From positions 1,818,946 through 1,882,945 of the forward strand of contig JAKVOM010000001.1 in assembly GCA_022482815.1 (NCBI GenBank): a stretch of 64,000 nt of DNA. The letters are read 5' to 3'. The translations under genes and the position numbers were made by a program. The notes under the pieces were generated by a model. That model had not been told where the DNA came from. It saw only the letters and a program-made list of their open reading frames with translations, and did no database searches. This document shows positions 32,421 through 55,526 of the stretch, piece by piece. Origin of the DNA: Acidaminococcus sp. (GTDB lineage Bacteria; Bacillota; Negativicutes; Acidaminococcales; Acidaminococcaceae). Each line of letters starts with the position of its first letter. The stretch's first letter is position 1.

Positions 32421-32533
32421 TTAACAAATTTCACAGATTATATTTTATTATAATTAAATTCATGTATAATGGACTTGTGAGATTATTGATTTTAAGTTTT
32501 ATTCTTAATCTTAATTGAAACAAGGTGGGCTTA
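32421..32533 (+). promoter_or_regulatory. AT-rich cas operon promoter region
   Basis: Two TATAAT boxes (32449-32454 and 32465-32470) in very AT-rich DNA about 65-80 bp before cas3. No convincing -35 box, so the exact promoter is unclear. The AT content is far above that of the pyr genes. Confidence 0.45.
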
Positions 32534-35089: not shown

Positions 35090-35102
35090 GGGAGGGACAA
35101 AA

Positions 35103-35879
35103 TTGTTTGCTTCAAATCCTTTTTATATGAAAATTGAGGGACCTTATGCGTTATTTACGGATCCGCTCAGCAAGGGGATTGGTGAAAAGGTAAGTTACCT
35201 GGTGCCAACCATGCAGGCCCTGAAAGGTATCGTGGAAGCGGTCTATTGGAAACCAACTTTGTATTATCTTATCGATGAAGTTAAAGTGTTGAAGCCGATT
35301 CAGACGGAAACGAAGAGTGTTCTTTTGCCAATGAATAATGGAAAAAAAGATTTAAGTCATTTTACGTACCTCCGTGATGTATCCTACGCCATCAAATTCC
35401 ATTTTGAGTGGGCCGAGGGAAGACCTCAACTTGAACAGGACCGCAATGAAAAAAAGCACGAGCAGATTTTACTGCGCTCTATGAAGCGGGGCGGCCGTCG
35501 GGATATATTTCTGGGAACCCGGGAGTGCATCGGAGCAGTAACCCGTTTAAGAGAAAAAGAATATGATGCACTCACTCCGCCTTTTACAGGAAAGCTTTCT
35601 CTTGGCATTATGTTCCATTCTTTTTCTTATCAGGAAACCAACAAGAATAAGAAGGGTGAAGGAGAATTATATTCTCAGTTTGATTCCATCGTGATGGAAA
35701 ATGGCGTCATTCGTTTTAAGCGCCCGGAGGATTGTCCAATCCATCATATGCTGACCAACTATAAAATTCATAGTTTTTCTAAAGATTCTGTACGTACGGT
35801 GGATGAAGAATGGGAAGCCTATAATCAGGAAGGAGGAATGGCGCATGAATCTGTTTCAGGCTCTGCTCAGCACGTATGA
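35103..35879 (+). CDS. cas5c: Type I-C Cas5 (Cas5c/Cas5d), crRNA-processing Cascade subunit
   Basis: In type I-C systems this protein replaces Cas6: it cuts pre-crRNA and caps the 5' handle. 258 residues from a TTG at 35103, chosen for the strong AAGGGAGGG seven bases before it; a frame extension to 35076 overlaps cas3. Starts FASNPFYMKIEGPYALFTDP, the Cas5 RAMP strand, and has VPTMQALKGIVEAVYWKPT and KRGGRRDIFLGTRECIG, conserved in Cas5d. The repeat hairpin of the downstream array is its expected substrate. Confidence 0.92.
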   Translation: MFASNPFYMKIEGPYALFTDPLSKGIGEKVSYLVPTMQALKGIVEAVYWKPTLYYLIDEVKVLKPIQTETKSVLLPMNNGKKDLSHFTYLRDVSYAIKFHFEWAEGRPQLEQDRNEKKHEQILLRSMKRGGRRDIFLGTRECIGAVTRLREKEYDALTPPFTGKLSLGIMFHSFSYQETNKNKKGEGELYSQFDSIVMENGVIRFKRPEDCPIHHMLTNYKIHSFSKDSVRTVDEEWEAYNQEGGMAHESVSGSAQHV

Positions 35880-37884
35880 ATATGCTGAATCCCAGCAGAT
35901 GGTCGATGATTTCCATGCTCCGAATGTCCCTACACTTCTGCCTTTATATCATTCCAATAGGAGAAGTTCGGGAAAGATGGATATTGCAGAACTGACTATC
36001 TCTGAAAAGGGTGAATTCCTGGAAGGCCGCTTCCTGGATGAAGGGGAGTACGTTGTTTTTCCCGTATCCGAGACTTCTGTCGTCCGTACTGCGAACCCCT
36101 GTCCACATCCTTTATTTGATGATTTTGCTTACGTAGCGGGGTCGTTTGATGATCCTGATTCTCTCAAGCACAAAATGTATTTGGAAGGGCTTGAGCCTCT
36201 TTCTGATTTTGAAAAAAAGCATCCTAACCGGACTTTCAGGGCGATTTATGATTACGTGACACGGCATGATGTAAAGCAGGATGTGCTGACTGTTATAAAA
36301 CAGACAACGGCCGGGACGGGTTATTTTCAAGGTAAAGAGAAGTCTCCTGCTGAAGGCGAGAAAAAAGGAAACTTAGACCAAATCAATTGGTATATAGACA
36401 AAAATGGAAAAACGGAATTGCATCATTTGCTGCTGCCCAAGATTTTTATTGTTTTTAAAGTGGAATTGAATGATGAGACTTCTGACAACAATCAAATGAA
36501 ACTGCTTCATCAGTTCTATATTGATTATGTAAATGCTCAGATTAAGACCGATCATTCTAAAGATGATTACTGCGACGTTTCAGGGGAAAAACAGTATTGC
36601 ATTTTTACGCATCGTGGAATCATGGGTACCGCAAAATTAATCGGAATTAGTAATCATCCGGAAACCTGGCGAGGACGTTTTAAAACCGGAGAGGAAGTCG
36701 TTCATGTCGGATATGTAACTTCTCAGAAAGTACATAACATGCTTAAATTTCTCATGGATTCTGATGCTTATAAACGTTACCTAGGAGGCAGCAGTTACGT
36801 AATTTCCTGGATGTCTCATGACCTGCTCCTGGGAGGTATGCCGATTACATCTGGCGTGATGGCAAGTGAAGAAGACGAAGATGATGAGAAAGAAGAGGAA
36901 ACCGTCCCTAGTGAAACCTATGTGTTAGGCAGTAATCGCAGCCGTTCTATCACTGATTTTGTTGCAGGTATTAAAGATATTAAGAATACAGATATCGACA
37001 ATTATTTCTGCGTGCTTATGATGGAGCAGATTAATAATGGACGTATAGCTGTAAAGTATTTCAGAACCTTTAGCAATTCTGACCTGAAAAAGAGGGTTAC
37101 AGCCTGGTTCCATGGTTTGGATTGGCCCATCTATTCTAAACAGAAACAAAAACGAATCGCAATGGCTCCATCATTGTTTTCAATTACCAATGTGCTTGTA
37201 GGAGATGACTCTGATAAAGCAATTACTGTGTCTGCCAAAAAAGAAAAAGTCAGAGTCAACTTCCTGGAAAGATTGATGGAGTGCATGCTGGAAGGAAAAC
37301 CATTGCCCAGGGATATTATGGAATTGGGATTTCAGCGAATTATAAATCCGGCTACCTTCAGATATCATTTAGGAAATGCCCATTTGGTTGTGGGGAGTCT
37401 GATTAAAAAATATGAGATGGATCATGGGACTCAAGTAGTTGATCAGGAAGGAGAACTTATCAGTATGAGTGACAGAAGCTTTATCTACGGCAGAATTCTG
37501 GCAGTGTATGATCAGATGGAAAGTTACGCGATGAAATTAAGGAGCGAAGAGAGCAGCAGTGAAAAAGCAGGGAGACCGACAAATGCCAGCAGGCTTTGGA
37601 CAGCTATGATTCAGCGCCCACAGCAGACAACCATGGAATTACAGAAACGTACACAGTACTGCAGAACTTATTTGCTTAAATCCCATAAGGGTTACGTGGT
37701 CACTCTTGATAAGATTTTGGGTGATTTGTATACAGAGATTCTTACACTGAATAAGAGTGACGCCGTAAATAATCGCCCCGTCAATGAAAATTTTATTCTG
37801 GGATTCTATTATCAAAAACAACAATTCTTTACGAAGCATGCTGACCATAAATCTGAAAATAAAACTCAGGCTGAAGAAGCTTAA
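35845..37884 (+). CDS. cas8c: Cas8c (Csd1), large Cascade subunit
   Basis: Large subunit of the type I-C Cascade, expected to recognise the PAM. 679 residues from the ATG at 35845 after AAGGAGGAATG; overlaps cas5c by 35 bp. N-terminus MNLFQALLSTYEYAE and the inner blocks RGIMGTAKLIGISNHPETWRG, YVTSQKVHNMLKFLM and TDFVAGIKDIKNTDIDNYFCVLMMEQINNGRIAVKYFR are typical for Csd1. A very acidic loop (EEDEDDEKEEE) lies near residue 345. In many I-C systems an internal start gives Cas11c from the 3' part of this gene; not verifiable here. Confidence 0.93.
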   Translation: MNLFQALLSTYEYAESQQMVDDFHAPNVPTLLPLYHSNRRSSGKMDIAELTISEKGEFLEGRFLDEGEYVVFPVSETSVVRTANPCPHPLFDDFAYVAGSFDDPDSLKHKMYLEGLEPLSDFEKKHPNRTFRAIYDYVTRHDVKQDVLTVIKQTTAGTGYFQGKEKSPAEGEKKGNLDQINWYIDKNGKTELHHLLLPKIFIVFKVELNDETSDNNQMKLLHQFYIDYVNAQIKTDHSKDDYCDVSGEKQYCIFTHRGIMGTAKLIGISNHPETWRGRFKTGEEVVHVGYVTSQKVHNMLKFLMDSDAYKRYLGGSSYVISWMSHDLLLGGMPITSGVMASEEDEDDEKEEETVPSETYVLGSNRSRSITDFVAGIKDIKNTDIDNYFCVLMMEQINNGRIAVKYFRTFSNSDLKKRVTAWFHGLDWPIYSKQKQKRIAMAPSLFSITNVLVGDDSDKAITVSAKKEKVRVNFLERLMECMLEGKPLPRDIMELGFQRIINPATFRYHLGNAHLVVGSLIKKYEMDHGTQVVDQEGELISMSDRSFIYGRILAVYDQMESYAMKLRSEESSSEKAGRPTNASRLWTAMIQRPQQTTMELQKRTQYCRTYLLKSHKGYVVTLDKILGDLYTEILTLNKSDAVNNRPVNENFILGFYYQKQQFFTKHADHKSENKTQAEEA

Positions 37885-37908: not shown

Positions 37909-38766
37909 ATGTCTACATTAAGTAAAAAAATTGATTTCGTTCTGTTCTTTTCTGTAAAAGACGCTAATCCTAACGGTGACCCGCTCCTTGAAAATATGCC
38001 TCGTACGGACTATGAGGGTCACGGAGAAGTATCCGATGTCTGCCTTAAAAGAAAAATTAGAAATCGCCTCCAGGACGCAGGTTATGAAATTTTTGTCCAA
38101 GCTAATGACCGTATTGAAGACGGCATGAAATCCTTGGAAGAAAGATTCGGAAAGGAATTTACTTCTAAGCAGGATGATTCAGAAGTAAGGGAAAAGGCTT
38201 GTGAAAAATGGATGGATGTGCGGAGTTTTGGGCAGGTTATCACCTTCCAAAAGCGTTCCATCGGGATCCGCGGACCTGTTTCTATCAGTTTGGCTAAGAG
38301 CCTTGATCCGGTAAGTACTATTTCCATGCAGATTACGAGAAGTACAAATGGTATGAAAGCTGCCAAAGAAGGCGGCCGTTCCAGTGATACCATGGGGACC
38401 AAAAACTTCGTCGAATTTGGCATCTATAAAGCCTGCGGCAGCATTAACTGTTATTTTGCCGAAAAAACCGGTTTCAGTGATGAAGATGCAGAGGCAATCA
38501 AAAAAGCTTTACTGACTTTGTTTGAAAATGATATGTCAAGTGCCCGCCCTGAAGGCAGCATGGCTGTTGAAAGATTATACTGGTTCACGCATCCCAATAA
38601 GTTGGGAATTGCCTCTTCCGCTAAGATCCATAGACTGGTTACTGCAGAGAAAAAATGTGAAGGCGAGCCCAAATCTTTTGCTGATTATGAGGTATCGGTT
38701 GATGAAGAACGTCTTGCCTCCTATCAAAACCAGGGATTACAGATGGAAGTCCTGGATGGCGAATGA
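37909..38766 (+). CDS. cas7c: Cas7c (Csd2), Cascade backbone subunit
   Basis: RAMP protein that polymerises along the crRNA. 285 residues. Starts IDFVLFFSVKDANPNGDPLLENMPRTDYEGHGEVSDVCLKRKIRNRLQD, the typical Csd2 opening (quoted here in overlapping parts: SVKDANPNGDPL, then VCLKRKIRN). Later WMDVRSFGQVITF and SIGIRGPVSISLAKSLDPV are conserved. GAAAGGGAG precedes the ATG. Its stop overlaps the cas4 start by 4 bp. Confidence 0.94.
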   Translation: MSTLSKKIDFVLFFSVKDANPNGDPLLENMPRTDYEGHGEVSDVCLKRKIRNRLQDAGYEIFVQANDRIEDGMKSLEERFGKEFTSKQDDSEVREKACEKWMDVRSFGQVITFQKRSIGIRGPVSISLAKSLDPVSTISMQITRSTNGMKAAKEGGRSSDTMGTKNFVEFGIYKACGSINCYFAEKTGFSDEDAEAIKKALLTLFENDMSSARPEGSMAVERLYWFTHPNKLGIASSAKIHRLVTAEKKCEGEPKSFADYEVSVDEERLASYQNQGLQMEVLDGE

Positions 38767-39434
38767 ACACAGATTTAAAAATTTGCAATGAAACGGAGTA
38801 CCTCCAGATTGCAGGCATACAGCACTTTGTCTTTTGTCGCCGCCAGTGGGGACTGATTCATCTTGAGCAGCGGTGGGAAGAAAATTTTTTCACTGCTGAT
38901 GGAAGAATTAAACATGACAGGGTGGATCATGGACCAACTAGTGAAAAAATAGGCAGCAAGAGGGTACTTCGTTCCATGCACGTTGTTTCCCATAAACTGC
39001 AGATCCAGGGAAAATGTGATGCTGTTGAGCTTGTGGAAGATCCCGATGGCAGCTATTTCAGCAAGTATCATACGAAATATAATGTCTATCCTATAGAATA
39101 TAAAAGAGGTAAAGAAAAGGATAACGACAGCGATACCCTGCAGCTGGTGGCCCAAGCAATTTGCCTGGAAGAAATGATGGGTGTCCATATCTCTACGGGC
39201 TTTATCTATTATTTTGAGACGCGTCGGCGAAAAGAGATTGCAATCTCTGACGAATTGCGTGACAAAGTAAAAGAAATCCTTGCTGAGATGAATAAATACT
39301 ATAAACAGGCCTATGTACCCAGGGTCAAAAAGACTCGAAAGTGCAGAGCTTGTTCTCTGCAAAATATTTGCATGCCGGAACTTGGAAACGTGAAGTCGGC
39401 CAAAGCCTACATTCAGGAAGTGACAGAAGAATGA
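38763..39434 (+). CDS. cas4: Cas4 exonuclease (spacer acquisition)
   Basis: RecB-like nuclease with an iron-sulfur cluster that trims prespacers and selects PAM-containing ends. 223 residues. First cluster Cys25 in HFVFCRRQW; three C-terminal Cys in KCRACSLQNIC. Nuclease motifs: the Asp in GKCDAVELVED, YPIEYKRGKEK with the catalytic Glu-x-Lys, and LQLVAQAICLEEMM with the QxxxY-like helix. Overlaps cas7c and cas1 by 4 bp each. Confidence 0.94.
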   Translation: MNTDLKICNETEYLQIAGIQHFVFCRRQWGLIHLEQRWEENFFTADGRIKHDRVDHGPTSEKIGSKRVLRSMHVVSHKLQIQGKCDAVELVEDPDGSYFSKYHTKYNVYPIEYKRGKEKDNDSDTLQLVAQAICLEEMMGVHISTGFIYYFETRRRKEIAISDELRDKVKEILAEMNKYYKQAYVPRVKKTRKCRACSLQNICMPELGNVKSAKAYIQEVTEE

Positions 39435-40462
39435 AGCAGTTGTTAAATACGCTGTATATCACCCTGCCTGACGTGTATGTGGGAAAACAAGGAGAAACAC
39501 TGGTCGTCAAAGATGACAAAAAAGTGTTGGGCCGTGTCCCCTTGCATAATCTCGATAATGTTGTCCTTTTCAACTATGTAGGGATGAGCCCTGCACTTTT
39601 GGAAGAATGTCATGATCATGGCGTTTCAGTAGCATACCTGACTACGAACGGCCGGTTTATCGGGCGCTTTCAAGGGGCCAGTACAGGTAATATTTTGCTG
39701 CGCCGAATTCAGTACCGCGTGTCGGATGACGCTCAGCAATCACTGGCAATTGCCAGAAACATCATCCTCGCCAAGATATACAATGAAAAATGGATTTTGG
39801 AACGTTATATCCGTCAATATGGCAGCCGGATTGATACGGTGCATTTGCAAAGCGAATCTGTGCGGCTCAGCGAGAGCATCAATAATGCGAAAAGCTGCCT
39901 TACCATGGACGACTTGCGGGGAATTGAGGGTGCAGCCCAGGAAGCGTATTTCTCCTGTTTTGATGAAATGATCCTGAATCAAAAAGAAGATTTTACCTTT
40001 GATGTGCGGTCTCGCAGACCTCCGTTAAATCGCGTCAATGCGCTGCTCTCTTTCTTTTATAGTGTTATGGGAAATGATATTGCCAGTGCACTGGAAACGG
40101 TAGGACTTGACGCTTACGCCGGATTTATGCACGTAGATAGACCCGGAAGAATTTCTCTTGCTCTCGACTTATTGGAAGAATTTCGCGGCTGTATTGTGGA
40201 CCGATTCTTACTCTCTCTTATTAATAAAAAGGAGATTGCCGCAAAGCATTTTACGGTGGAATCCAGCGGTGCTGTACTTTTAAATGATGAGGGACGCCGT
40301 GAAGCATTGACGAAGTGGCGGGAAAGAAAGCTTGAAACAATTACTCATCCTTATCTTGATGAAAAAATGCCATGGGGACTGGTACCTTTTGTTCAAGCCA
40401 ATCTTTTAGCTCGCTATCTGCGAGGGGATATAGATGCCTATCCACCATTTTTCTGGAAATGA
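39431..40462 (+). CDS. cas1c: Cas1 integrase (type I-C)
   Basis: Catalytic subunit of the spacer integration complex. 343 residues from the ATG at 39431, overlapping the cas4 stop. N-terminal beta domain (LYITLPDVYVGKQGETLVVKDDKKVLGRVPLH in parts) and the C-terminal helical domain with the three metal ligands: Glu in GAAQEAYFSCFD near 180, His in GFMHVDRPGR near 236, and Asp/Glu in LALDLLEEFR near 249. Complete and apparently functional, in line with the very large array. Confidence 0.96.
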   Translation: MKQLLNTLYITLPDVYVGKQGETLVVKDDKKVLGRVPLHNLDNVVLFNYVGMSPALLEECHDHGVSVAYLTTNGRFIGRFQGASTGNILLRRIQYRVSDDAQQSLAIARNIILAKIYNEKWILERYIRQYGSRIDTVHLQSESVRLSESINNAKSCLTMDDLRGIEGAAQEAYFSCFDEMILNQKEDFTFDVRSRRPPLNRVNALLSFFYSVMGNDIASALETVGLDAYAGFMHVDRPGRISLALDLLEEFRGCIVDRFLLSLINKKEIAAKHFTVESSGAVLLNDEGRREALTKWRERKLETITHPYLDEKMPWGLVPFVQANLLARYLRGDIDAYPPFFWK

Positions 40463-40474
40463 GGTGGGAAAAAC

Positions 40475-40765
40475 ATGTATGTACTGGTTACGTATGATAT
40501 TTCCACAGAATCAAATGCCGGAAAAAGGAGACTGCGTAAGGTCGCTAAGGCATGCATGAATCGTGGACAGCGTGTTCAAAACTCAGTTTTTGAATGCAAA
40601 CTGGATGAAGCTCAATTTGTTGTATTAAAGAATGTACTTAAAAATATCATTGACCCTGATCATGACAGTTTGCGTTTTTATCGATTAAGTAAAAATTATA
40701 AAAGTCAAATCGAAACAATGGGAGTTAATCTCGCCTATGACATCGATGGAACGCTGATTTTGTAA
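40475..40765 (+). CDS. cas2: Cas2 (type I-C)
   Basis: Structural partner of Cas1. 96 residues, typical. Ferredoxin-like fold beginning MYVLVTYDISTES with Asp8, then RRLRKVAKACMNRGQRVQNSVFEC, standard for Cas2 (parts quoted). GAGGTGGGAAAA before the ATG. Last gene of the operon; 160 bp of leader separate it from the array. Confidence 0.95.
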   Translation: MYVLVTYDISTESNAGKRRLRKVAKACMNRGQRVQNSVFECKLDEAQFVVLKNVLKNIIDPDHDSLRFYRLSKNYKSQIETMGVNLAYDIDGTLIL

Positions 40766-40924
40766 AAGTGAGCAACGTGCGAAAGTGGAGTGATTGAAAA
40801 ATTGTCGGGCCATTCGCACCGGTTTTGGCAGACTTTATAAGTTAAAAATGATGTCAAAGTCTGTGTTATAAGGAAGAAGTTAAGTGAAAGCTAGGTATAG
40901 AGGATAAAACCACTATATGTAGCG
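40766..40924 (+). promoter_or_regulatory. CRISPR leader
   Basis: AT-rich 159 bp between cas2 and the first repeat, the expected place of new spacer insertion and of the array promoter. TTTATAAGTTAAAAATGATG lies at about 40836. No gene. The polarity is confirmed by decayed repeats at the far end only. Confidence 0.7.
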
Positions 40925-43900
40925 GTCGCCCCACGCGAGTGGGGCGTGGATTGAAGGATGATTTGGGTGATGAACTTGTAGGACAGGCTGGGTCGCCCCA
41001 CGCGAGTGGGGCGTGGATTGAAGGTTTAATGACGGGGAAAAGATTAAGATCTGCAAGGGTCGCCCCACGCGAGTGGGGCGTGGATTGAAGGAGCTTGTCC
41101 TGGGCATCCAGGTAGATGTGATAGCTCGTCGCCCCACGCGAGTGGGGCGTGGATTGAAGGGTCCATGGCCCTCTGTGCGTCCTTGAGCTGTCCGAGTCGC
41201 CCCACGCGAGTGGGGCGTGGATTGAAGGGTGGTAGTTGTTAATGTGTGCGTATGGTTTCCGTTTGGTCGCCCCACGCGAGTGGGGCGTGGATTGAAGGGT
41301 TTTGAGCAGTTGCCTGTGCAGTATCGCAACCTGGTCGCCCCACGCGAGTGGGGCGTGGATTGAAGGTTGGGATGCCCAGGGCGTCAGTAACGCCCTGCTG
41401 ACGTCGCCCCACGCGAGTGGGGCGTGGATTGAAGGCTCATTCTTACACCGTCTTTCTGGCCAGGTCGATGCGTCGCCCCACGCGAGTGGGGCGTGGATTG
41501 AAGGAGAATGTTGTTCTGAATACTCCAAGACAATCCCAAGTCGCCCCACGCGAGTGGGGCGTGGATTGAAGGAAGCAATAGCAACATCGTTTTTCAGTGT
41601 ACCGATGTCGCCCCACGCGAGTGGGGCGTGGATTGAAGGCGTAAGCAGAAGCGAAGCAAACAGGAACATTGATGTCGCCCCACGCGAGTGGGGCGTGGAT
41701 TGAAGGACCTCGGTTATTTTGATGACCACCCTTGCCAACTCCGTCGCCCCACGCGAGTGGGGCGTGGATTGAAGGGCGATCGGCGGCAACCCTGCCCCCG
41801 GCAAGGCGGCGTCGCCCCACGCGAGTGGGGCGTGGATTGAAGGGTTTACGTGGGGGGTGCCCAACCAGGTTAAAGCAGTCGCCCCACGCGAGTGGGGCGT
41901 GGATTGAAGGGTCGATAATGTTTTGTTTAGATTCGGCCATTGAGGTCGCCCCACGCGAGTGGGGCGTGGATTGAAGGTCGAAAACCCTGGTTAACTCTCC
42001 TCCATCATCAGGTCGCCCCACGCGAGTGGGGCGTGGATTGAAGGTTGCCGAACAGCAGCCAAGTAAAGGCATCCATCAGTCGCCCCACGCGAGTGGGGCG
42101 TGGATTGAAGGCAGTTCGATTCTCTCCATGATCAATCTCTCCTTTTGTCGCCCCACGCGAGTGGGGCGTGGATTGAAGGAATCTGGCGGACCCGACGGAC
42201 GAACAGATAGAGAGGTCGCCCCACGCGAGTGGGGCGTGGATTGAAGGTGCTGTAAGCAGAACGGACTATGCGGCATTGTATGTCGCCCCACGCGAGTGGG
42301 GCGTGGATTGAAGGTGCCATGCGCTGGGCGTTGTCCATCGCAATGAAGTCGCCCCACGCGAGTGGGGCGTGGATTGAAGGTGGTTAACGACAACGGACGC
42401 GTTGGCGCCTGCATCGTCGCCCCACGCGAGTGGGGCGTGGATTGAAGGTCGTTGAAGTAGAGCGGGTCCGTCAGCAGCTTGAAGTCGCCCCACGCGAGTG
42501 GGGCGTGGATTGAAGGGGAAATAATCTTCAATTTCCGTGATCGGAACCGCAGTCGCCCCACGCGAGTGGGGCGTGGATTGAAGGTGGTTAACGACAACGG
42601 ACGCGTTGGCGCCTGCATGTCGCCCCACGCGAGTGGGGCGTGGATTGAAGGTACTAAAGCCGTAAATTTATCGCTAGGGCTCATTGTCGCCCCACGCGAG
42701 TGGGGCGTGGATTGAAGGAGGTCGGTGAATCTAGCCACGGCGCGCACGATGGTGTCGCCCCACGCGAGTGGGGCGTGGATTGAAGGATGTATAAATCTTG
42801 CGCGCTCATTTCAGCCAGCAGTCGCCCCACGCGAGTGGGGCGTGGATTGAAGGTTTTTATCGGGCGGAAAAATGCCAAATCCATTCTGGTCGCCCCACGC
42901 GAGTGGGGCGTGGATTGAAGGCGTACTGGTTGTCCATGATTTTGAAATTCGGCAGGTCGCCCCACGCGAGTGGGGCGTGGATTGAAGGGTACTGCTTCAG
43001 TTGGGTTTTGACGGTAAACTCGGTCGCCCCACGCGAGTGGGGCGTGGATTGAAGGAATCTTTGTAGAGGCATCCTGGATTTCCCTTACCCTGTCGCCCCA
43101 CGCGAGTGGGGCGTGGATTGAAGGCTCCAAGCAGAACGGCAATGTACCAGTAGTCTGGTCGCCCCACGCGAGTGGGGCGTGGATTGAAGGTTTATAATCG
43201 CAATTATAAAGCTCCGCACTTTGGTCGCCCCACGCGAGTGGGGCGTGGATTGAAGGTCATATCAGGATAATTGTCACGCAGTTCACTGTAAGTCGCCCCA
43301 CGCGAGTGGGGCGTGGATTGAAGGTAAGGAAGAAGTCGTGGATCCGTCCAACTGGATCAGTCGCCCCACGCGAGTGGGGCGTGGATTGAAGGAAAAAATC
43401 TCCACCCCATCCCCACACGGCCATGTGTCGCCCCACGCGAGTGGGGCGTGGATTGAAGGATCTTTCAGCCGTGCCAGCTGGGCTTTGGCAGCGGTCGCCC
43501 CACGCGAGTGGGGCGTGGATTGAAGGTATATCCCATGCTGACGATGCGCTTGCCAATCTCGTCGCCCCACGCGAGTGGGGCGTGGATTGAAGGACGTGCG
43601 GTGCATATTTTTTAGATGCCAGGATGGTGTCGCCCCACGCGAGTGGGGCGTGGATTGAAGGGACAAGCCGGAACACGTTAAGATTACGCAGTGCGAGTCG
43701 CCCCACGCGAGTGGGGCGTGGATTGAAGGTTTGCAAGTTCTAGCTGGTATCTTCGTAATGCAGTCGCCCCACGCGAGTGGGGCGTGGATTGAAGGCATTT
43801 TTAACCCTCCGTGATATAATGGAGGTGGAGTCGCCCCACGCGAGTGGGGCGTGGATTGAAGGTTTGGCGATATCCGGATCCGGTTCATACAGTAATGAGT

Positions 43901-46900
43901 CGCCCCACGCGAGTGGGGCGTGGATTGAAGGGTACTCAACGGAATTTCCGGTCGTCAGGGCGTCGCCGTCGCCCCACGCGAGTGGGGCGTGGATTGAAGG
44001 AGAACTGGTTAATTTTTAACGCAGAAGTTTACCGTCGCCCCACGCGAGTGGGGCGTGGATTGAAGGTATGAACGCTCAGCAGGTAATGTCCGGCACCGAA
44101 GGTCGCCCCACGCGAGTGGGGCGTGGATTGAAGGCGTCAGCTTGTGGCTAGCTTCCCCGCCCATATCCGTCGCCCCACGCGAGTGGGGCGTGGATTGAAG
44201 GGGGCTTTTATGCTGAAAGAAATCGAACAGGAAAAGTCGCCCCACGCGAGTGGGGCGTGGATTGAAGGCTGTGGTCGGGACGGTGACGCTGACATGAGTG
44301 ATCAGTCGCCCCACGCGAGTGGGGCGTGGATTGAAGGAGTAAACGTCGGGAGGCTCTGGCTTGCAGTCTCTGGTCGCCCCACGCGAGTGGGGCGTGGATT
44401 GAAGGACCATACTCTTATACAGGCCAAGGGCACGCTTGCCGTCGCCCCACGCGAGTGGGGCGTGGATTGAAGGAGAGTCAAACTGAAATACACATCGCCG
44501 CTGCCGTGTCGCCCCACGCGAGTGGGGCGTGGATTGAAGGGTGATGTCAAAGTTGTTTTTCGGTTCAGGTCCTTGTCGCCCCACGCGAGTGGGGCGTGGA
44601 TTGAAGGTTCCCTGCCCAGGATTACAATTTCCTGCAAACCGGTCGCCCCACGCGAGTGGGGCGTGGATTGAAGGGGCTATTTTTATGCAGATGAAGGGAA
44701 AGAAGACGTCGCCCCACGCGAGTGGGGCGTGGATTGAAGGCCATGCTCATACAATCACTATCGCATCAACAGGCGGCGTCGCCCCACGCGAGTGGGGCGT
44801 GGATTGAAGGTTTAAGGAACGGGCTGTAATAGCTCCCGACTTTGGTCGCCCCACGCGAGTGGGGCGTGGATTGAAGGAAACTGAAAGACCAGGCCGGAGA
44901 CCTGAGCATCCGGTCGCCCCACGCGAGTGGGGCGTGGATTGAAGGTTATGAGTGGTCCGGGGACCTGGAACAGGCAGGCGTCGCCCCACGCGAGTGGGGC
45001 GTGGATTGAAGGCTGCTTCGTGACGTACGTGCTGATGACTTGCTCGTAGGTCGCCCCACGCGAGTGGGGCGTGGATTGAAGGTCCTGGAAACGGTGGTAC
45101 ATGTCGTTGAGTGCTGTCGCCCCACGCGAGTGGGGCGTGGATTGAAGGATCTTCATCCACCAGGCTCTTCCCGATGAAGCCTGTCGCCCCACGCGAGTGG
45201 GGCGTGGATTGAAGGAACCTGGATGATCTCTCAGGAATGTATTTCTTCGGGTCGCCCCACGCGAGTGGGGCGTGGATTGAAGGTTCTCAGCTGGCGTTAG
45301 CATCTTGTTGAAGGCCGTCGCCCCACGCGAGTGGGGCGTGGATTGAAGGCATTTTTAACCCTCCGTGATATAATGGAGGTGGAAGTCGCCCCACGCGAGT
45401 GGGGCGTGGATTGAAGGCATTTCGTAGGATCTGGAATCTCTGGACTGCATGAGTCGCCCCACGCGAGTGGGGCGTGGATTGAAGGTTTTTATCGGTCGAA
45501 AGAACGCAAAATCAATCCTGGTCGCCCCACGCGAGTGGGGCGTGGATTGAAGGGTACTACAGCTGGCACTGTGCCCATGCGCCGGCATGTCGCCCCACGC
45601 GAGTGGGGCGTGGATTGAAGGCTGTCGATGGTTGCCCGGCCAGCCTGGCTCTTATGTCGCCCCACGCGAGTGGGGCGTGGATTGAAGGAGAATCAATCCG
45701 GATGGCACCCGAACCCCGTACATGTCGCCCCACGCGAGTGGGGCGTGGATTGAAGGATGCTGCATCCTCCTTATATCCTGGACGTCTTGAGTCGCCCCAC
45801 GCGAGTGGGGCGTGGATTGAAGGTATGACGCTCCCGATCATGCCTGAAACGGTGGAAGTCGCCCCACGCGAGTGGGGCGTGGATTGAAGGACTTCTGGCG
45901 GCCAGCCAGGCAGCATGATCTTTGGTCGCCCCACGCGAGTGGGGCGTGGATTGAAGGAATGGCGTCAAGCATGGAAATCGTGGACTTGATGAAGTCGCCC
46001 CACGCGAGTGGGGCGTGGATTGAAGGTTGTATAACCTGGCCACGAAGGCTGTGGCAAACAAGTCGCCCCACGCGAGTGGGGCGTGGATTGAAGGTTGCCG
46101 TTATCGCCGAAACAGCCATGGTAGTGGGCTGTCGCCCCACGCGAGTGGGGCGTGGATTGAAGGAATGTGTTCCCCTTCTTCTTCAAGCGCTTTCATGTCG
46201 CCCCACGCGAGTGGGGCGTGGATTGAAGGATATAATGGGAGGGGCCTTGCGGCCCCTGCTTTTAGTCGCCCCACGCGAGTGGGGCGTGGATTGAAGGGAT
46301 CTCTTTATAACCTGCGTTGTTGAAAACCGGCGTCGCCCCACGCGAGTGGGGCGTGGATTGAAGGCTGTTCCCGGTCTTTATCCCCCCCGTCGTTATCCGT
46401 CGCCCCACGCGAGTGGGGCGTGGATTGAAGGTTCCAGGCATTTAATGGCCTTGTGAATATCCTTGCGTCGCCCCACGCGAGTGGGGCGTGGATTGAAGGG
46501 TCCACAATAATCAGCACGGGCGGCGCCAGGCTGCGGTCGCCCCACGCGAGTGGGGCGTGGATTGAAGGCTACAAAATTCCACCATTTTGCACCCCCTTAC
46601 GGGTCGCCCCACGCGAGTGGGGCGTGGATTGAAGGCTTTCAGCTTTTTCAGGGCCGGGACCTCAAATTTCGTCGCCCCACGCGAGTGGGGCGTGGATTGA
46701 AGGATCGTCGGCGATCCAGTCACCACATCGCAAGGCAAGTCGCCCCACGCGAGTGGGGCGTGGATTGAAGGGATCTCTTTATAACCTGCGTTGTTGAAAA
46801 CCGGCAGTCGCCCCACGCGAGTGGGGCGTGGATTGAAGGATCCTCCTTTTAACGTTTAAACCGTATAGTAATTAGTCGCCCCACGCGAGTGGGGCGTGGA

Positions 46901-49900
46901 TTGAAGGGGTAATGCGGTATAACAATCGGTCATAGCCGTTGAAGTCGCCCCACGCGAGTGGGGCGTGGATTGAAGGTTGATGTATTCCGGCCCCAACGTG
47001 CCGTAATGCTGTCGCCCCACGCGAGTGGGGCGTGGATTGAAGGTTTTTCTGTCTGCGTAAAATTCGGCAACCTTACCATGTCGCCCCACGCGAGTGGGGC
47101 GTGGATTGAAGGCGGTTTCCAGTGCTCCCGATTTTCAGTCGGTACGGGTCGCCCCACGCGAGTGGGGCGTGGATTGAAGGTGCGACAAATCATAAGTACA
47201 GGCTTTTTTTTCGTCGCCCCACGCGAGTGGGGCGTGGATTGAAGGTCACAAGGCTGATAGATGCCGTCATTGGAGATGACAGTCGCCCCACGCGAGTGGG
47301 GCGTGGATTGAAGGTGAAAAAGGTTGATTAGGGAGGAAATAAATCGTTGCAACGTCGCCCCACGCGAGTGGGGCGTGGATTGAAGGCAGAAGGGGTGTGA
47401 TTAACGTGAAAGGAGGCGAAAGTCGCCCCACGCGAGTGGGGCGTGGATTGAAGGATCTGAGAAATATGTTCCAACAGGGGGAAATTTTTGTCGCCCCACG
47501 CGAGTGGGGCGTGGATTGAAGGTTCTCCAGGCTCAGCCATTTTTTATGGTTCGTTCCGGTCGCCCCACGCGAGTGGGGCGTGGATTGAAGGCGGATTGGT
47601 AAAAAATATCTGGCCACAAGGGAACGTCGCCCCACGCGAGTGGGGCGTGGATTGAAGGGTGAAAGGTATCCCACAAAATTCGTATGTTTCAGTCGCCCCA
47701 CGCGAGTGGGGCGTGGATTGAAGGCTGTCGCACTTGAAAGCCATACACTCGGTGATTCCGTCGCCCCACGCGAGTGGGGCGTGGATTGAAGGCTGGATTT
47801 CGGAATAGAGTTCCGGGTCAATGGGTTGTCGCCCCACGCGAGTGGGGCGTGGATTGAAGGCTTCGAAGTGCTCTTTCAGGAACTCGACATACTGTCGCCC
47901 CACGCGAGTGGGGCGTGGATTGAAGGTTGATGACTGAGGTGGCGCACTATGGTTGAGGTCGTCGCCCCACGCGAGTGGGGCGTGGATTGAAGGATGATCA
48001 AGATTATGAAAGCTATCCCCAGCGCTTACAGTCGCCCCACGCGAGTGGGGCGTGGATTGAAGGCAGAGTAGCGGGCATCATTTGCGGTACTCCGATGACG
48101 TCGCCCCACGCGAGTGGGGCGTGGATTGAAGGCTTTATGGATTTTGCGGGTCTCACCGACACCGCCGGTCGCCCCACGCGAGTGGGGCGTGGATTGAAGG
48201 TGCTGTATCGCGTTCACCAGGGCATCGCCGGTCGGTCGCCCCACGCGAGTGGGGCGTGGATTGAAGGTCTCCACGGTGGCCAGCAAGGCAGGCCTGACCC
48301 TGTCGCCCCACGCGAGTGGGGCGTGGATTGAAGGTGGTCGTGTCAGACTCTCACACCATTGAAAACAGTCGCCCCACGCGAGTGGGGCGTGGATTGAAGG
48401 GAGAAAATTGACCTGGAAAACATCCTGGTAATCATGTCGCCCCACGCGAGTGGGGCGTGGATTGAAGGATTGTCAGGCAGACCCCGCCGGACGTAATTGT
48501 TTAGTCGCCCCACGCGAGTGGGGCGTGGATTGAAGGGCCAATAATGAGTTCTGCCCCGCTTGCTTCAATCGTCGCCCCACGCGAGTGGGGCGTGGATTGA
48601 AGGCAGGTAGTCGGCAACGTCGCCTTTCACCGGACACTCCGGTCGCCCCACGCGAGTGGGGCGTGGATTGAAGGTGAGCTATGAGGAAATCCTGGGGAAA
48701 CTGAACAACGTGTCGCCCCACGCGAGTGGGGCGTGGATTGAAGGCCGCATGTTCCCGTACTCGTCCATCACAGCGCCGTCAGTCGCCCCACGCGAGTGGG
48801 GCGTGGATTGAAGGAGTGTAGCCGGAAAACGGCTGCCGTTCCAGAGCAGTCGCCCCACGCGAGTGGGGCGTGGATTGAAGGCAACTTGGGACGTCGTAGT
48901 CCGGGTCCAGCTCTTGTCGCCCCACGCGAGTGGGGCGTGGATTGAAGGACTCAGCTTCGTCAGGTCACTAAGGTCAAAATGCAGTCGCCCCACGCGAGTG
49001 GGGCGTGGATTGAAGGCATGAAAGCAACCGGGACCGGGAAGCCGGAAACGGTCGCCCCACGCGAGTGGGGCGTGGATTGAAGGACAATGAAACCGATGAG
49101 ATTAGACAGCACATTGAGTCGCCCCACGCGAGTGGGGCGTGGATTGAAGGCCTTTCCGGATGTGACAACAACCTTGGTAACGATGGTCGCCCCACGCGAG
49201 TGGGGCGTGGATTGAAGGTGACAAAGCACTGTAATATCATGGCCTCCGGGACGTCGCCCCACGCGAGTGGGGCGTGGATTGAAGGATATAATGGGAGGGG
49301 CCTTGCGGCCCCTGCTTTTAGGTCGCCCCACGCGAGTGGGGCGTGGATTGAAGGTTTCAGGTCTTCGAACCGCGTTTCCCGTGTGTGCGTCGCCCCACGC
49401 GAGTGGGGCGTGGATTGAAGGCAGGAGCTGATGAAAACCGGGACGACCGATAAACAGTCGCCCCACGCGAGTGGGGCGTGGATTGAAGGAAATCCGGCGT
49501 CCTGCAATGCGCTGGCCGCCTGAGTCGCCCCACGCGAGTGGGGCGTGGATTGAAGGTGTCCTAAAAGACACAACAAGGAGGTGATACGAAAATGTCGCCC
49601 CACGCGAGTGGGGCGTGGATTGAAGGGGTGATACGATACAGCAGGCGGTCGTAGCCGTTGGTCGCCCCACGCGAGTGGGGCGTGGATTGAAGGCGGTTAC
49701 AATCACAACATACGACGCCTTAACGCCGCGTCGCCCCACGCGAGTGGGGCGTGGATTGAAGGATCGAGGTTGCTTTCAATGCTGTCAGTTCTTTCGTCGT
49801 CGCCCCACGCGAGTGGGGCGTGGATTGAAGGACCGTCGTAGATCACTACATGATCATTGTCACCATGTCGCCCCACGCGAGTGGGGCGTGGATTGAAGGC

Positions 49901-52900
49901 TGCTTGTCCTTTAGATGTAGTTTTTTTAACTCATGTCGCCCCACGCGAGTGGGGCGTGGATTGAAGGTAAAATCTTCTATTGCTTTTTTCTGTGCTTCTC
50001 TGTCGCCCCACGCGAGTGGGGCGTGGATTGAAGGATATAGTCGTTATAATAAAAATCTTCCAACGGCCAGGTCGCCCCACGCGAGTGGGGCGTGGATTGA
50101 AGGTTGACAGGTAAATGCCCGCCCGGGAACACCTTAATGTCGCCCCACGCGAGTGGGGCGTGGATTGAAGGGTGTCCCACGCTATCCGTGAATTTGGGCC
50201 AACAAGCGTCGCCCCACGCGAGTGGGGCGTGGATTGAAGGATGTTCCCGTACTCGTCCATCACAGCGCCGTCAAGGTCGCCCCACGCGAGTGGGGCGTGG
50301 ATTGAAGGCCTGTGTGGTGTATCACGATCATGTCGGTAGTGTCGTGTCGCCCCACGCGAGTGGGGCGTGGATTGAAGGTCATCAGGCGCAGGGATGGTCC
50401 GGAATCGGCTACGTCGCCCCACGCGAGTGGGGCGTGGATTGAAGGATTTGCCCGTACTCGTCCATCACAGCCCCGTCAAGTCGCCCCACGCGAGTGGGGC
50501 GTGGATTGAAGGGGATCATTAACACCTAGGACCGTGACGGACATGAGTCGCCCCACGCGAGTGGGGCGTGGATTGAAGGCTCACTGCTATATCGGTAAGC
50601 ATTTCCTTTCGTTCGTCGCCCCACGCGAGTGGGGCGTGGATTGAAGGCCACACCGGAAGAGAGCGGATTATCCGATGATGATGTCGCCCCACGCGAGTGG
50701 GGCGTGGATTGAAGGATCTTCTGTATCACTATCCGCCGGTACAATAATGTCGCCCCACGCGAGTGGGGCGTGGATTGAAGGAAAAATTTTTACCGTTTCT
50801 TTGGTTGCGTTTCCGTCGCCCCACGCGAGTGGGGCGTGGATTGAAGGCCTGTGCAGCGCCGGCAATGGTCTCACGGTCTGGTCGCCCCACGCGAGTGGGG
50901 CGTGGATTGAAGGAAACTGGCCGATGTACGGCAGCTCATAATCCCTGTCGCCCCACGCGAGTGGGGCGTGGATTGAAGGTGTTTTGCGTCCCGACAAGTT
51001 AGAAATTTGCAAGAGTCGCCCCACGCGAGTGGGGCGTGGATTGAAGGATCGACGGCTGCGGCGATGTAGTAACTCCAGGGGAGGTCGCCCCACGCGAGTG
51101 GGGCGTGGATTGAAGGCGTTCGGCAACCGAAAGGATCTTTTTCCCCATTTGTCGCCCCACGCGAGTGGGGCGTGGATTGAAGGATCTAAGACTGCGCCGT
51201 CAAGATAGATGCCGCGGAGGTCGCCCCACGCGAGTGGGGCGTGGATTGAAGGGGTTGCCGAACGAAAAGAAATGCTTACCGATATAGGTCGCCCCACGCG
51301 AGTGGGGCGTGGATTGAAGGATCGACGGCTGCGGCGATGTAGTAACTCCAGGGGAGGTCGCCCCACGCGAGTGGGGCGTGGATTGAAGGCAAAACGCACC
51401 CTGCAGGACTGGGAAGGAGGGCGGTCGCCCCACGCGAGTGGGGCGTGGATTGAAGGTTAGGCAAGTATGGCAAGTATGGTAGTGATTACGTCGCCCCACG
51501 CGAGTGGGGCGTGGATTGAAGGATTTCCTTACTGTCTCCGGCATCTTCAGGACCGCCGTCGCCCCACGCGAGTGGGGCGTGGATTGAAGGCGGTGTAGCC
51601 GTCAATGCGCTGTAAGAGCGTGAGGTCGCCCCACGCGAGTGGGGCGTGGATTGAAGGCCATACGCCTAAGCCTTCGCCGCGTCCCTGATATTGTCGCCCC
51701 ACGCGAGTGGGGCGTGGATTGAAGGACAATTAAGATTGGCGGAAGACGTCGTCATTGTTGTCGCCCCACGCGAGTGGGGCGTGGATTGAAGGGTCGTATA
51801 CTCCTCTTAACAATGGAGAGAGGTAAAGTCGCCCCACGCGAGTGGGGCGTGGATTGAAGGCGGTACGTCTTGCCTGCAAATTCAAATTTCATGATGTCGC
51901 CCCACGCGAGTGGGGCGTGGATTGAAGGGGAAAGGTTTGTATTAGTCCGCTGTACTTCTACTGTCGCCCCACGCGAGTGGGGCGTGGATTGAAGGTTTAA
52001 CGTGCCTAATGTAGTGTTAAAGCAAGTAGATGTCGCCCCACGCGAGTGGGGCGTGGATTGAAGGCTTACTTATGCTGTCCATAACACCGGGCCTCCTCGT
52101 CGCCCCACGCGAGTGGGGCGTGGATTGAAGGAGATTAAGTGAGGCGAGACATCATGACAGAAGAAAGTCGCCCCACGCGAGTGGGGCGTGGATTGAAGGA
52201 AGTCCCTGAGTGCCGGAAGCAAAAGTGCGTACTTGTCGCCCCACGCGAGTGGGGCGTGGATTGAAGGAGATTCGCCATTGTGGATGCAGTCATCGTATAC
52301 AGTCGCCCCACGCGAGTGGGGCGTGGATTGAAGGGTTGTCTTTATTGTATCACGAATTTTTTAAAAAGGTCGCCCCACGCGAGTGGGGCGTGGATTGAAG
52401 GTGATGAGTCTTTTCCTCGTCGCTAGCCATTTTCGTCGCCCCACGCGAGTGGGGCGTGGATTGAAGGCAATTAGGCGTGCTCTGGATGTAGAAGTCGTTC
52501 CGGGTCGCCCCACGCGAGTGGGGCGTGGATTGAAGGCAATTAGGCGTGCTCTGGATGTAGAAGTCGTTCCGGTCGCCCCACGCGAGTGGGGCGTGGATTG
52601 AAGGCATCATGATTCCGGTCCAAAATGCTGTTGTGGTCGTCGCCCCACGCGAGTGGGGCGTGGATTGAAGGATCTTTATCAGGCCATTTAGGGATAAGCG
52701 TTACTGTCGCCCCACGCGAGTGGGGCGTGGATTGAAGGTTAAAAAGTAAACTTTGTGTCGTATCCACCGGTCGTCGCCCCACGCGAGTGGGGCGTGGATT
52801 GAAGGTCATCGGTTAGCGTTACTAAATCGCCGACTTCCGTCGCCCCACGCGAGTGGGGCGTGGATTGAAGGTGACCTAGCAAATTTGACGTATGGGACGA

Positions 52901-54872
52901 GTTTAAGTCGCCCCACGCGAGTGGGGCGTGGATTGAAGGCGGTTTGAAGTGGAAGTCGGCTCTGGCAAGCCTCGTCGCCCCACGCGAGTGGGGCGTGGAT
53001 TGAAGGCGGTTTGAAGTGGAAGTCGGCTCTGGCAAGCCTCGTCGCCCCACGCGAGTGGGGCGTGGATTGAAGGCTAATTGGAAATTCAAGATTAAGGTCC
53101 TGCGCCGGTCGCCCCACGCGAGTGGGGCGTGGATTGAAGGCTGTTTGAGGCTGAAAAGCTAAAGGCCAGAAACGGTCGCCCCACGCGAGTGGGGCGTGGA
53201 TTGAAGGCACTCTTAAATGGCTTAGGACATTGAAGGAATTTCGTCGCCCCACGCGAGTGGGGCGTGGATTGAAGGTTCATTGTCACCTGCATAATCATCA
53301 ATCAATGAGGTCGCCCCACGCGAGTGGGGCGTGGATTGAAGGCCGTTGGCAAGGACTAGCGGACGTCGGGTACAGCGGTCGCCCCACGCGAGTGGGGCGT
53401 GGATTGAAGGTTGCGCTGCCGCTCCACCTCCGCACTGATTCCGCGTCGCCCCACGCGAGTGGGGCGTGGATTGAAGGCCGGATGAATTTGTAGAAGCGCT
53501 GGCGCATTACCGTCGCCCCACGCGAGTGGGGCGTGGATTGAAGGAGAGAAGCGATTGACGCACTGAAAAGCGTGTTCCCGTCGCCCCACGCGAGTGGGGC
53601 GTGGATTGAAGGGGAAAACTCGGCGGCTATGAAACAAACGAGTATGGTCGCCCCACGCGAGTGGGGCGTGGATTGAAGGGATTTTGAATACGGCCTTAAT
53701 CCGGCCCTGACCCAGTCGCCCCACGCGAGTGGGGCGTGGATTGAAGGTTGTGATAGCAGGATGCATCCCTGTTTTTGGGTCGTCGCCCCACGCGAGTGGG
53801 GCGCGGATTGAAGGCAGCAAAAGACGCTGGCATGTACTTCCGTGTTCGTGGTCGCCCTACGCGAGTGGGGCGTGGATTGAAGGGTATAAACCGCAATCGT
53901 CGTATCTGTTGCTCTAACGTCGCCCCACACATGTGGGGCGTGGATTGAAAATGCACGGACTGCAACATCATCATGCAGCACGTGAGGGGCGTGGATTGAA
54001 GGATGGATAATATTATCTATGCAAAGAACCGTCTCGTCGCCCCATGCGAGTGGGGCGTGGATTGAAGAATTTCGCCCAAGGAATTAATATTGATACTGCT
54101 ATTGTCGCCCAACGTGAGTAGGCGTGGCTTGAAGGATCAACAGTTAAGATACTCTTTTAAAACCATAATAGTCGCCCCACGCGAGTGGGGCGTGGATTGA
54201 AGGAGCACCGCGGGTCCGACGGGCGGTTACGAGTACTGTTGCCCCACGCATGTGGGGCGTGGATTGAAGGTCAAGTCCCTTCTTAAGTTGTCCTCTAATT
54301 AGTTAGTCGACCCACGCGAGTGGGGCGTGGATTGAAGGCATTATAAATAAGGCTCGCCTCTTGCGTGACTGCGTCGCCCCACGCGAGTGGGGCGTGGATT
54401 GAAGGCGACTTTGTCGGCGCTTTGCGCCCTTGGCGGTGTGTCTCCCCACACATGTGAAGTGTGGATTGAAGGATTGATACCCTTAAATATATTGTCAATT
54501 CCGGATGTCGCCCCACGCATGTGGGGCGTGGATTGAAGGACGGGTCTCAATATCAATATGGAAATCGGAGACCGTCGCCCCACGTGAGTGGGGTGTGGAT
54601 TGAAGGCAGATTTTCATAGCCATTGGCATATCAACGTATAGTAGCCTCACGCTAGTGGGGCGTGGATTGAAGGCGGTACGGATCTGGCAGATGTCGCCGG
54701 AGGCGAAAGTCACTCCACTTGAGAGGGGCGTGGATTGAAGGATATCCAAAACATTTTGTTTTATGGCCGCTTGCATGTCGCCCCACGCATGTGGCGTAGA
54801 TGAAATTTAATAACAAGACAAATGTGATATAATAAACTTGTCGTTACACTCAAGTGGAACGTGGATTGAAGA
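40925..54872 (+). CRISPR. Type I-C CRISPR array, about 205 repeats
   Basis: 33-bp repeat beginning GTCGCCCC and ending GTGGATTGAAGG, with hairpin CCCCAC-GCGA-GTGGGG. Unit length is 66-70 bp (spacers 33-37 bp). I estimate about 190 near-perfect repeats from 40925 to about 53780 by dividing length by period (averages of 68.2 near the leader and 67.2 near the end), then about 17 mostly degenerate ones. Several spacers are present twice. Type I-C is set by the adjacent cas5c/8c/7c genes and by the repeat ending ATTGAAxx. All reading frames in this region are repeat artefacts. No interrupting IS element or gene was seen. Confidence 0.97.
53782..54872 (+). repeat. Decayed leader-distal end of the array
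   Basis: From 53782 nearly every repeat has mutations; only those at about 54171 and 54373 look perfect. One at about 53970 has lost its first half, and the last (54840-54872) keeps little more than GTCG, AAGTGGAACGTGGATTGAAG. Several share the loop variant CCCCACGCATGTGGGG instead of GCGA (about 54238, 54507, 54777; ACAT at 53919). Confidence 0.85.
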
Positions 54873-54906
54873 ATATTTTCTGTTATGAACTGACCCCTTG
54901 TCGAGG

Positions 54907-54941
54907 AATGCCGCCCCATACTCGTGAGGCGGCATTTTTGA
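54907..54941 (+). terminator. Terminator after the CRISPR array
   Basis: AATGCCGCC pairs with GGCGGCATT, followed by TTTTG, 35 bp past the last decayed repeat. Confidence 0.85.
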
Positions 54942-55526
54942 CTCAAAGTTAGTTGGATATAGAGACAAAAGAATCCAAAACTGTCACGGCGACACTTATA
55001 AAATCAGTATCTTACTTCCGAGCTAAAGATGATTTATTCATTCCGGCCGTTAGGCCGTACCACTCTGCCGAAGGCGGTGGCCAAAAGCTATATGCTAAAA
55101 GCGCCTTTTATCCAGCTAACTGCAGCCAACTGCTAACTGCCATCTGCCATCAGCTATCTGCCTCATGCTTTACCCAACAATCTGCCCGCACTACGGTACT
55201 AACCACTATCGTCTAACCCCTAACCACTTCGCCGCTGGCCGGGGCCAAATGCGCCTTTTCAGCAAACTGCAGCTAAATGCTAACTGCCATCAGCTATCTG
55301 CCTCATGTTTTACCCAACTATCTGCCCGCACTACGGTACTAACCACTATCGTCTAACCCCTAACCACTTCGCCGCTGGCCGGGGCCAAATGCGCTTTTCA
55401 GCAAACGGCAGCTATCTGCTAACGGCTAACTGCTATCTGCCTCATGTTTTACCCAACTATCTGCTCGCACTACAGTACTAACCCCTAGCCACCATCCACT
55501 AGCCACTATTAGTCGACTAATATACC
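54942..55526. repeat. Three tandem ~139-bp degenerate repeats
   Basis: CTATCTGCCTCATG occurs at about 55154, 55294 and 55433, each followed by TTTTACCCAAC, TCTGCCCGCACTAC, GTACTAACCACTATC and GGCCGGGGCCAAATGCGC. Frames through it encode nothing recognisable. Similar words occur at 2.7, 12.0, 56.6 and 57.4 kb. Confidence 0.7.

What the first reader, a model, noticed from the sequence alone, without database searches (positions are those of the whole stretch)
40925..54872. Exceptionally large type I-C array (about 205 repeats, 14 kb)
Most arrays have tens of repeats. Here about 190 repeats are practically identical over 13 kb, next to a complete cas operon with cas1, cas2 and cas4, so acquisition has been active for long and repeats have been kept uniform. 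The array alone takes over a fifth of the window.
Basis: partly seen in the sequence, partly recalled or inferred. Interest (0 to 1): 0.7.

Follow-up and report, generated by a model that had tools for sequence, protein, structure and literature searches.

The report
Long CRISPR array recording phage waves
This is a real, unusually long (about 207-repeat) but otherwise ordinary type I-C CRISPR immune memory in a gut-type bacterium (probably Acidaminococcus), in which half of the newer two thirds of the entries can be traced, in successive waves, to two families of phages that live in sister species.

Summary
The array is real at the stated coordinates: 205 clear repeats plus 2 degenerate ones, 40925-54872. 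The first 190 are identical over 33 nt; the last 15-17 are decayed. It follows a complete type I-C operon (cas3-5-8c-7-4-1-2). 200 of 202 normal-length spacers are distinct, which argues against an expansion artefact. It is long (published mean 12.7 spacers per array) but no record (588 and 1,131 are published).

Best explained as a working I-C immune memory. 67 of the 136 newer spacers match phages or loci of congeners, mostly two temperate phage lineages, with a 5'-TTC PAM and almost no shuffled matches; only 1 of 65 older spacers matches anything. Matches come in blocks along the array, and duplicate spacers share the PAM-side end but mostly differ by 1 nt at the other end, as expected from repeated PAM-anchored acquisition. 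The operon is foreign to its order; congeners use a different I-C lineage, also with long arrays (up to 152 repeats), against the same phages.

Repeat uniformity plus a relic tail points to recent growth after an old or collapsed stage, rather than to repeats being kept uniform for long. New member of a known kind; interest moderate.

The parts
32525..35089 (+). cas3 (HD nuclease + helicase, 854 aa)
   Evidence: NCBIfam TIGR01587 and TIGR01596 above cut-off
35076..35879 (+). cas5c (crRNA processing, I-C)
   Evidence: TIGR01876 E 9e-70
35803..37884 (+). cas8c/csd1 (large subunit; true start may be 35845)
   Evidence: TIGR01863 E 3e-65, above cut-off
37909..38766 (+). cas7/csd2
   Evidence: TIGR02589 E 8e-105
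38763..39434 (+). cas4
   Evidence: TIGR00372 E 3e-33
39431..40462 (+). cas1c
   Evidence: TIGR03640 type I-C Cas1 E 4e-137
40475..40765 (+). cas2
   Evidence: TIGR01573 E 5e-21
40766..40924 (+). leader (159 bp between cas2 and first repeat); role inferred from position
   Evidence: sequence read; only one chance-level promoter-like match
40925..53781 (+). body of the array: 190 identical 33-nt repeats with their spacers
53782..54872 (+). relic tail: repeats 191-205 plus two decayed repeats at 54104-54135 and 54777-54807
54900..54942 (+). hairpin followed by T5, a terminator-like end of the array, whose stem resembles a decayed repeat
   Evidence: -24.4 kcal/mol, z -5.4; not caught by the consensus scan

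Best explanation
A complete, probably active type I-C CRISPR-Cas locus. Cas4-Cas1-Cas2 cut fragments of invading temperate phages next to a TTC PAM and insert them at the leader end (next to cas2), copying the first repeat each time. Cascade (Cas5-Cas8c-Cas7) with Cas3 then destroys matching DNA. The 190-repeat body grew recently relative to the tail, in successive waves against two phage lineages (X and Y) that circulate in the genus. The tail is an old remnant. The operon was acquired from outside the order; congeners hold a different I-C lineage that targets the same phages. Shown: anatomy, PAM, targets, block order, PAM-anchored duplicates. Inferred: activity, interference, recent growth, transfer.
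For: Intact seven-gene I-C operon. 67 of 136 leader-side spacers match phage X, phage Y or other congener loci. In genomes of the genus 79 matches have 0-7 mismatches in 33, against 0 for shuffled spacers, and 64 of the 95 matches kept have TTC at -3..-1; 136 of 202 with IMG/VR records added. Labels X and Y fall in 12 runs against 28.5 expected, none of 20,000 permutations as low. Duplicate spacers share the 5' (PAM-side) end and mostly differ by 1 nt at the 3' end; I-C Cas4 cuts precisely at the PAM end (PMC6519985). Pairs 29/68 and 89/129 are variants of one site, changes mostly three bases apart, and each pair maps to one phage position. No match to the own genome outside the array; its homologues of the X terminase and Y capsid are only 23-26% identical. 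Same-lineage Cas8c in none of the other 62 genomes of the order apart from one 26% match; congener I-C Cas1 46%, Cas3 25-27%, against Cas1 61% and Cas7 70% in an uncultured Clostridia MAG.
Against: No expression or interference data. Targets are homologues of the true donors (few perfect matches). 64 of 65 oldest spacers have no known target. Strand bias, which would have supported priming, is fully explained by TTC supply (27 of 34 against 723:212). No reads to exclude a mis-assembly. Transfer of the operon rests on identities, not on a tree.
Confidence: 0.87

Rival explanations
1. Array length is inflated by assembly error or by tandem duplication of repeat-spacer blocks.
For: Two exact duplicate pairs (150/154, and the adjacent 178/179) could be duplications.
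Against: 200 of 202 spacers are distinct; most duplicate pairs differ by 1 nt in length, which copying would not give; targets are ordered in blocks; single-contig genome.
Confidence: 0.04
2. Steady growth over a very long time with repeats kept identical by gene conversion or selection.
For: Congeners also have long uniform arrays with a decayed end (first 140 of 152 clean in G002, 56 of 61 in G001). Repeated epochs show growth over more than one outbreak.
Against: Step at repeat 191: if age rose linearly with position, the tail would carry 14% of the summed repeat age, yet it has all 49 substitutions. Copying from the leader-end repeat explains uniformity without correction.
Confidence: 0.12
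3. The locus is a frozen archive: a long array retained after activity ended.
For: In congener G002 a 152-repeat array sits beside remnants of cas7 and cas4, so such archives may exist in the genus.
Against: All seven cas genes are open and score above a family cut-off; no decay in the 190 leader-side repeats; leader-end spacers 2-4 match phage Y, spacer 2 with no mismatch.
Confidence: 0.1

Closest known systems
Type I-C CRISPR-Cas (e.g. Bacillus halodurans)
   Same: Gene set cas3-5-8c-7-4-1-2, leader beside cas2, palindromic repeat, TTC PAM, spacers mostly 33-37 nt.
   Different: Repeat is 33 nt and ends in GAAGG, so its last base cannot come from the C of the PAM, as PMC8482600 suggests for some I-C repeats. 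The array is about 16 times the mean array length.
I-C arrays of congeners G001, G002, G004
   Same: Long arrays (61, 152, 65 repeats), TTC/TTT PAM, same phages targeted; spacer 63 equals G001 spacer 19 at 33 of 34 positions.
   Different: Different I-C lineage (Cas1 46%, Cas3 25-27%) and different repeats; in G002 only cas remnants were found beside the array.
Haliangium ochraceum array (588 repeats; PMC4869251)
   Same: Giant single array.
   Different: Almost three times longer, 36-bp repeats.

Membership tests
Type I-C CRISPR-Cas | cas8c/csd1, cas5c and cas7/csd2 as effector genes | tested here: met
   TIGR01863, TIGR01876 and TIGR02589 above cut-off
Type I-C CRISPR-Cas | cas3 with HD and helicase parts | tested here: met
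   TIGR01596 and TIGR01587 above cut-off
Type I-C CRISPR-Cas | adaptation genes cas4, cas1c, cas2 | tested here: met
   TIGR00372, TIGR03640, TIGR01573 above cut-off
Type I-C CRISPR-Cas | array with palindromic repeat and unique spacers | tested here: met
   repeat hairpin -17.4 kcal/mol, z -3.7
Type I-C CRISPR-Cas | 5' PAM TTC on the protospacer | tested here: met
   TTC in 64 of 95 and 136 of 202 matches
Type I-C CRISPR-Cas | crRNA production, interference, new acquisition | not testable with these tools
   needs RNA-seq and plasmid or phage challenge

The most novel reading that the evidence does not exclude
The array is a time-ordered natural record of interference-driven (primed) acquisition by a horizontally acquired I-C system. 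After a collapse that left only a relic tail, it was refilled in a few bursts. Each burst took spacers from a limited stretch of one phage: spacers 14-28 all hit the left half of phage X, spacers 80-136 all but one the right half (Fisher 3.8e-7), and within the blocks 28 to 14 and 92 to 81 the hits move towards the PAM side (rank correlation 0.84 and 0.78). Mosaic donor phages could give the same pattern and are not excluded.
Probability: 0.25. Interest if true: 0.5.

Novelty: new member of a known kind. Interest (0 to 1): 0.36.

Why it matters
It offers about 200 ordered immune records with identifiable phages, and sister species that record the same phages with a different I-C lineage and the same PAM. 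That would make array growth, spacer loss and repeated targeting of one phage family testable outside the laboratory. It does not change what a type I-C system is.

Tried and rejected
Rejected: strand bias as evidence of priming (explained by TTC counts). Rejected: spacers aimed at a hypervariable (diversity-generating) phage region, suspected from the tandem-repeat consensus; all-against-all comparison shows only ordinary duplicates and homologous sites. Rejected: seed-region escape, since mismatches are flat along the spacer (8.8 per position in the first 8 against 7.9 in the rest). No result: spacers against named phage records (only weak matches to Streptomyces phages and one faecal phage); exact repeat in IMG/VR; cores of two duplicated old spacers in IMG/VR; old third of the array against 380 genomes of the class, array-array noise only, with few candidates scored per genome. 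The global test for consecutive movement towards the PAM side was not significant (54% of steps, p 0.34); only two blocks chosen after the fact show it, and one loses significance if spacer 80, a duplicate of 87, is included. Comparison between strains of the species was not possible (one genome per species held).

Full report
Observation. An ungapped scan finds 205 repeats at 40925-54871; two more, decayed, sit inside over-long spacers at 54104 and 54777. The repeat is 33 nt, since the base after the 32-mer is G in 202 of 205 copies. The first 190 copies are identical; numbers 191-205 hold 49 substitutions. Of 202 spacers shorter than 60 nt 200 are distinct strings. The genome is a single contig of 3,057,042 bases. 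Glutaconate CoA-transferase of this genome is about 90% identical (read from the alignment) to PDB 1poi, which I recall as Acidaminococcus fermentans; the genus Acidaminococcus is therefore an inference.

Anatomy. Upstream lie cas3, cas5c, cas8c, cas7, cas4, cas1c and cas2, each matching an NCBIfam model above its cut-off. They follow a pyrimidine-synthesis operon. The array is followed by a terminator-like hairpin with T5, a cupin gene and an autotransporter. A leader of 159 bp separates cas2 from repeat 1. By the rules of known CRISPR systems new units enter there, so repeat 1 is the youngest and 205 the oldest (inference, supported by the decay at the far end).

Targets. Against prophage-bearing regions of sister species, 79 matches have 0-7 mismatches in 33 positions; shuffled spacers give none. 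TTC stands at -3..-1 in 64 of the 95 matches kept and in 136 of 202 after adding four IMG/VR records. Two lineages dominate. X: prophages of G004 and G008, IMG/VR 3300046030_000042 and 2826144243_000004. Y: prophage of G003, IMG/VR 2524614855_000001 and 2593339211_000001. A few spacers match other loci in G002, G005 and G008. 67 of 136 spacers on the leader side map, 1 of 65 on the far side (Fisher 1e-13). Spacers 116 and 138 share one protospacer and 141 is a variant of it, so the two parts of the array are linked by at least one target and a change of host between them is not required. The host itself carries neither X nor Y: its homologues of the X terminase and Y capsid are 23-26% identical, and no spacer matches its genome outside the array.

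Order. Along the array the targets come in blocks: Y (2-4), X (14-28), Y (29-76), X (80-94), mixed (96-136); 12 runs against 28.5 expected, never reached in 20,000 permutations. Spacers 14-28 hit only the left part of X, 80-136 all but once the right part (Fisher 3.8e-7), although all four X genomes are hit in both parts. Acquisition next to earlier targets, or mosaic donors, would each explain this. Strand bias is no argument: 27 of 34 hits on + equals the TTC supply of 723 to 212.

Re-acquisition. Several spacers occur twice (22/25, 43/66, 79/124, 80/87, 171/172, 150/154, 178/179). Five of these seven pairs share the PAM-side end and differ by one base at the other end, which duplication of a unit would not give but independent PAM-anchored acquisition would. 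In type I-C, Cas4 cuts precisely at the PAM and did not appear to cleave strongly at non-PAM sites (PMC6519985); acquisition from fully matched targets is reported for type I-C (Rao et al. 2017 as cited in PMC7056967).

Origin. The repeat is absent from 58 other genomes of the family, and a Cas8c of this lineage from 62 other genomes of the order, apart from one 26% match. The nearest operon found is in an uncultured Clostridia MAG (Cas1 61%, Cas7 70%, Cas8c 42%). Congeners G001 and G004 carry a different I-C lineage (Cas1 46%, Cas3 25-27%) with 61 and 65 repeats; G002 has 152 repeats beside fragments of cas7 and cas4. Their spacers also show TTC/TTT and hit the same phages or congener loci: 32 of 60 (G001), 9 of 64 (G004), 23 of 151 (G002). 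The genome's second system, type II-C-like with 27 repeats, has at most two spacers against X or Y. Horizontal gain of the I-C operon is inferred, not shown by a tree.

Growth. If repeats aged evenly with position, the last 15 would hold 14% of the summed age, yet they hold all 49 substitutions. Recent fast growth after an old or collapsed stage fits; refilling of collapsed arrays by primed acquisition has been proposed for Legionella (PMC7056967). Decayed repeats should recombine poorly and so escape deletion, which would preserve the tail (inference).

Rarity. Published mean is 12.73 spacers per array, maximum 1,131 in metagenomes (PMC8026048) and 588 repeats in a genome (PMC4869251). From the published fit I compute 1.2e-4 of arrays with 205 or more spacers. 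So: uncommon, not extraordinary, and a member of a known kind.

Noticed in passing
L059 7108-17866 (G002:C7:660107 onward): In a congener a 152-repeat, nearly uniform I-C array stands beside fragments of cas7 and cas4 only; cas1 and the other cas genes were not found in the stretch fetched.
   Followed up: partly
window 53919-54807: In the relic tail, repeats with loop GCAT (or ACAT) alternate with the GCGA loop of the body (numbers 193, 197, 200, 201 and the decayed one at 54777). The same two-base change in non-adjacent repeats suggests two old repeat types, mixed by recombination.
   Followed up: partly
L104 (G000:C1:1966000-1982000), array C1:1973630-1975380: Second CRISPR system of the genome: type II-C-like (Cas9 C-terminal part, Cas1, Cas2) with 27 repeats of 36 nt; one spacer matches phage X with 3 mismatches.
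   Followed up: partly
window 59442-59917 within 57911-61795: Autotransporter of 1,294 aa with six copies of a 75-bp tandem repeat.
   Followed up: no
window 55132-55487: 2.6 copies of a 140-bp tandem repeat just after the array, with inner repetition of the kind GCTAACTGC/CATCTGC.
   Followed up: no
window 13001-14245: IS110-family transposase gene.
   Followed up: no
L007 (G000:C1:1887267-1887935): Reverse transcriptase gene about 4 kb beyond the window's end; a second one at C1:848850, near a terminase-like gene at C1:845675.
   Followed up: no
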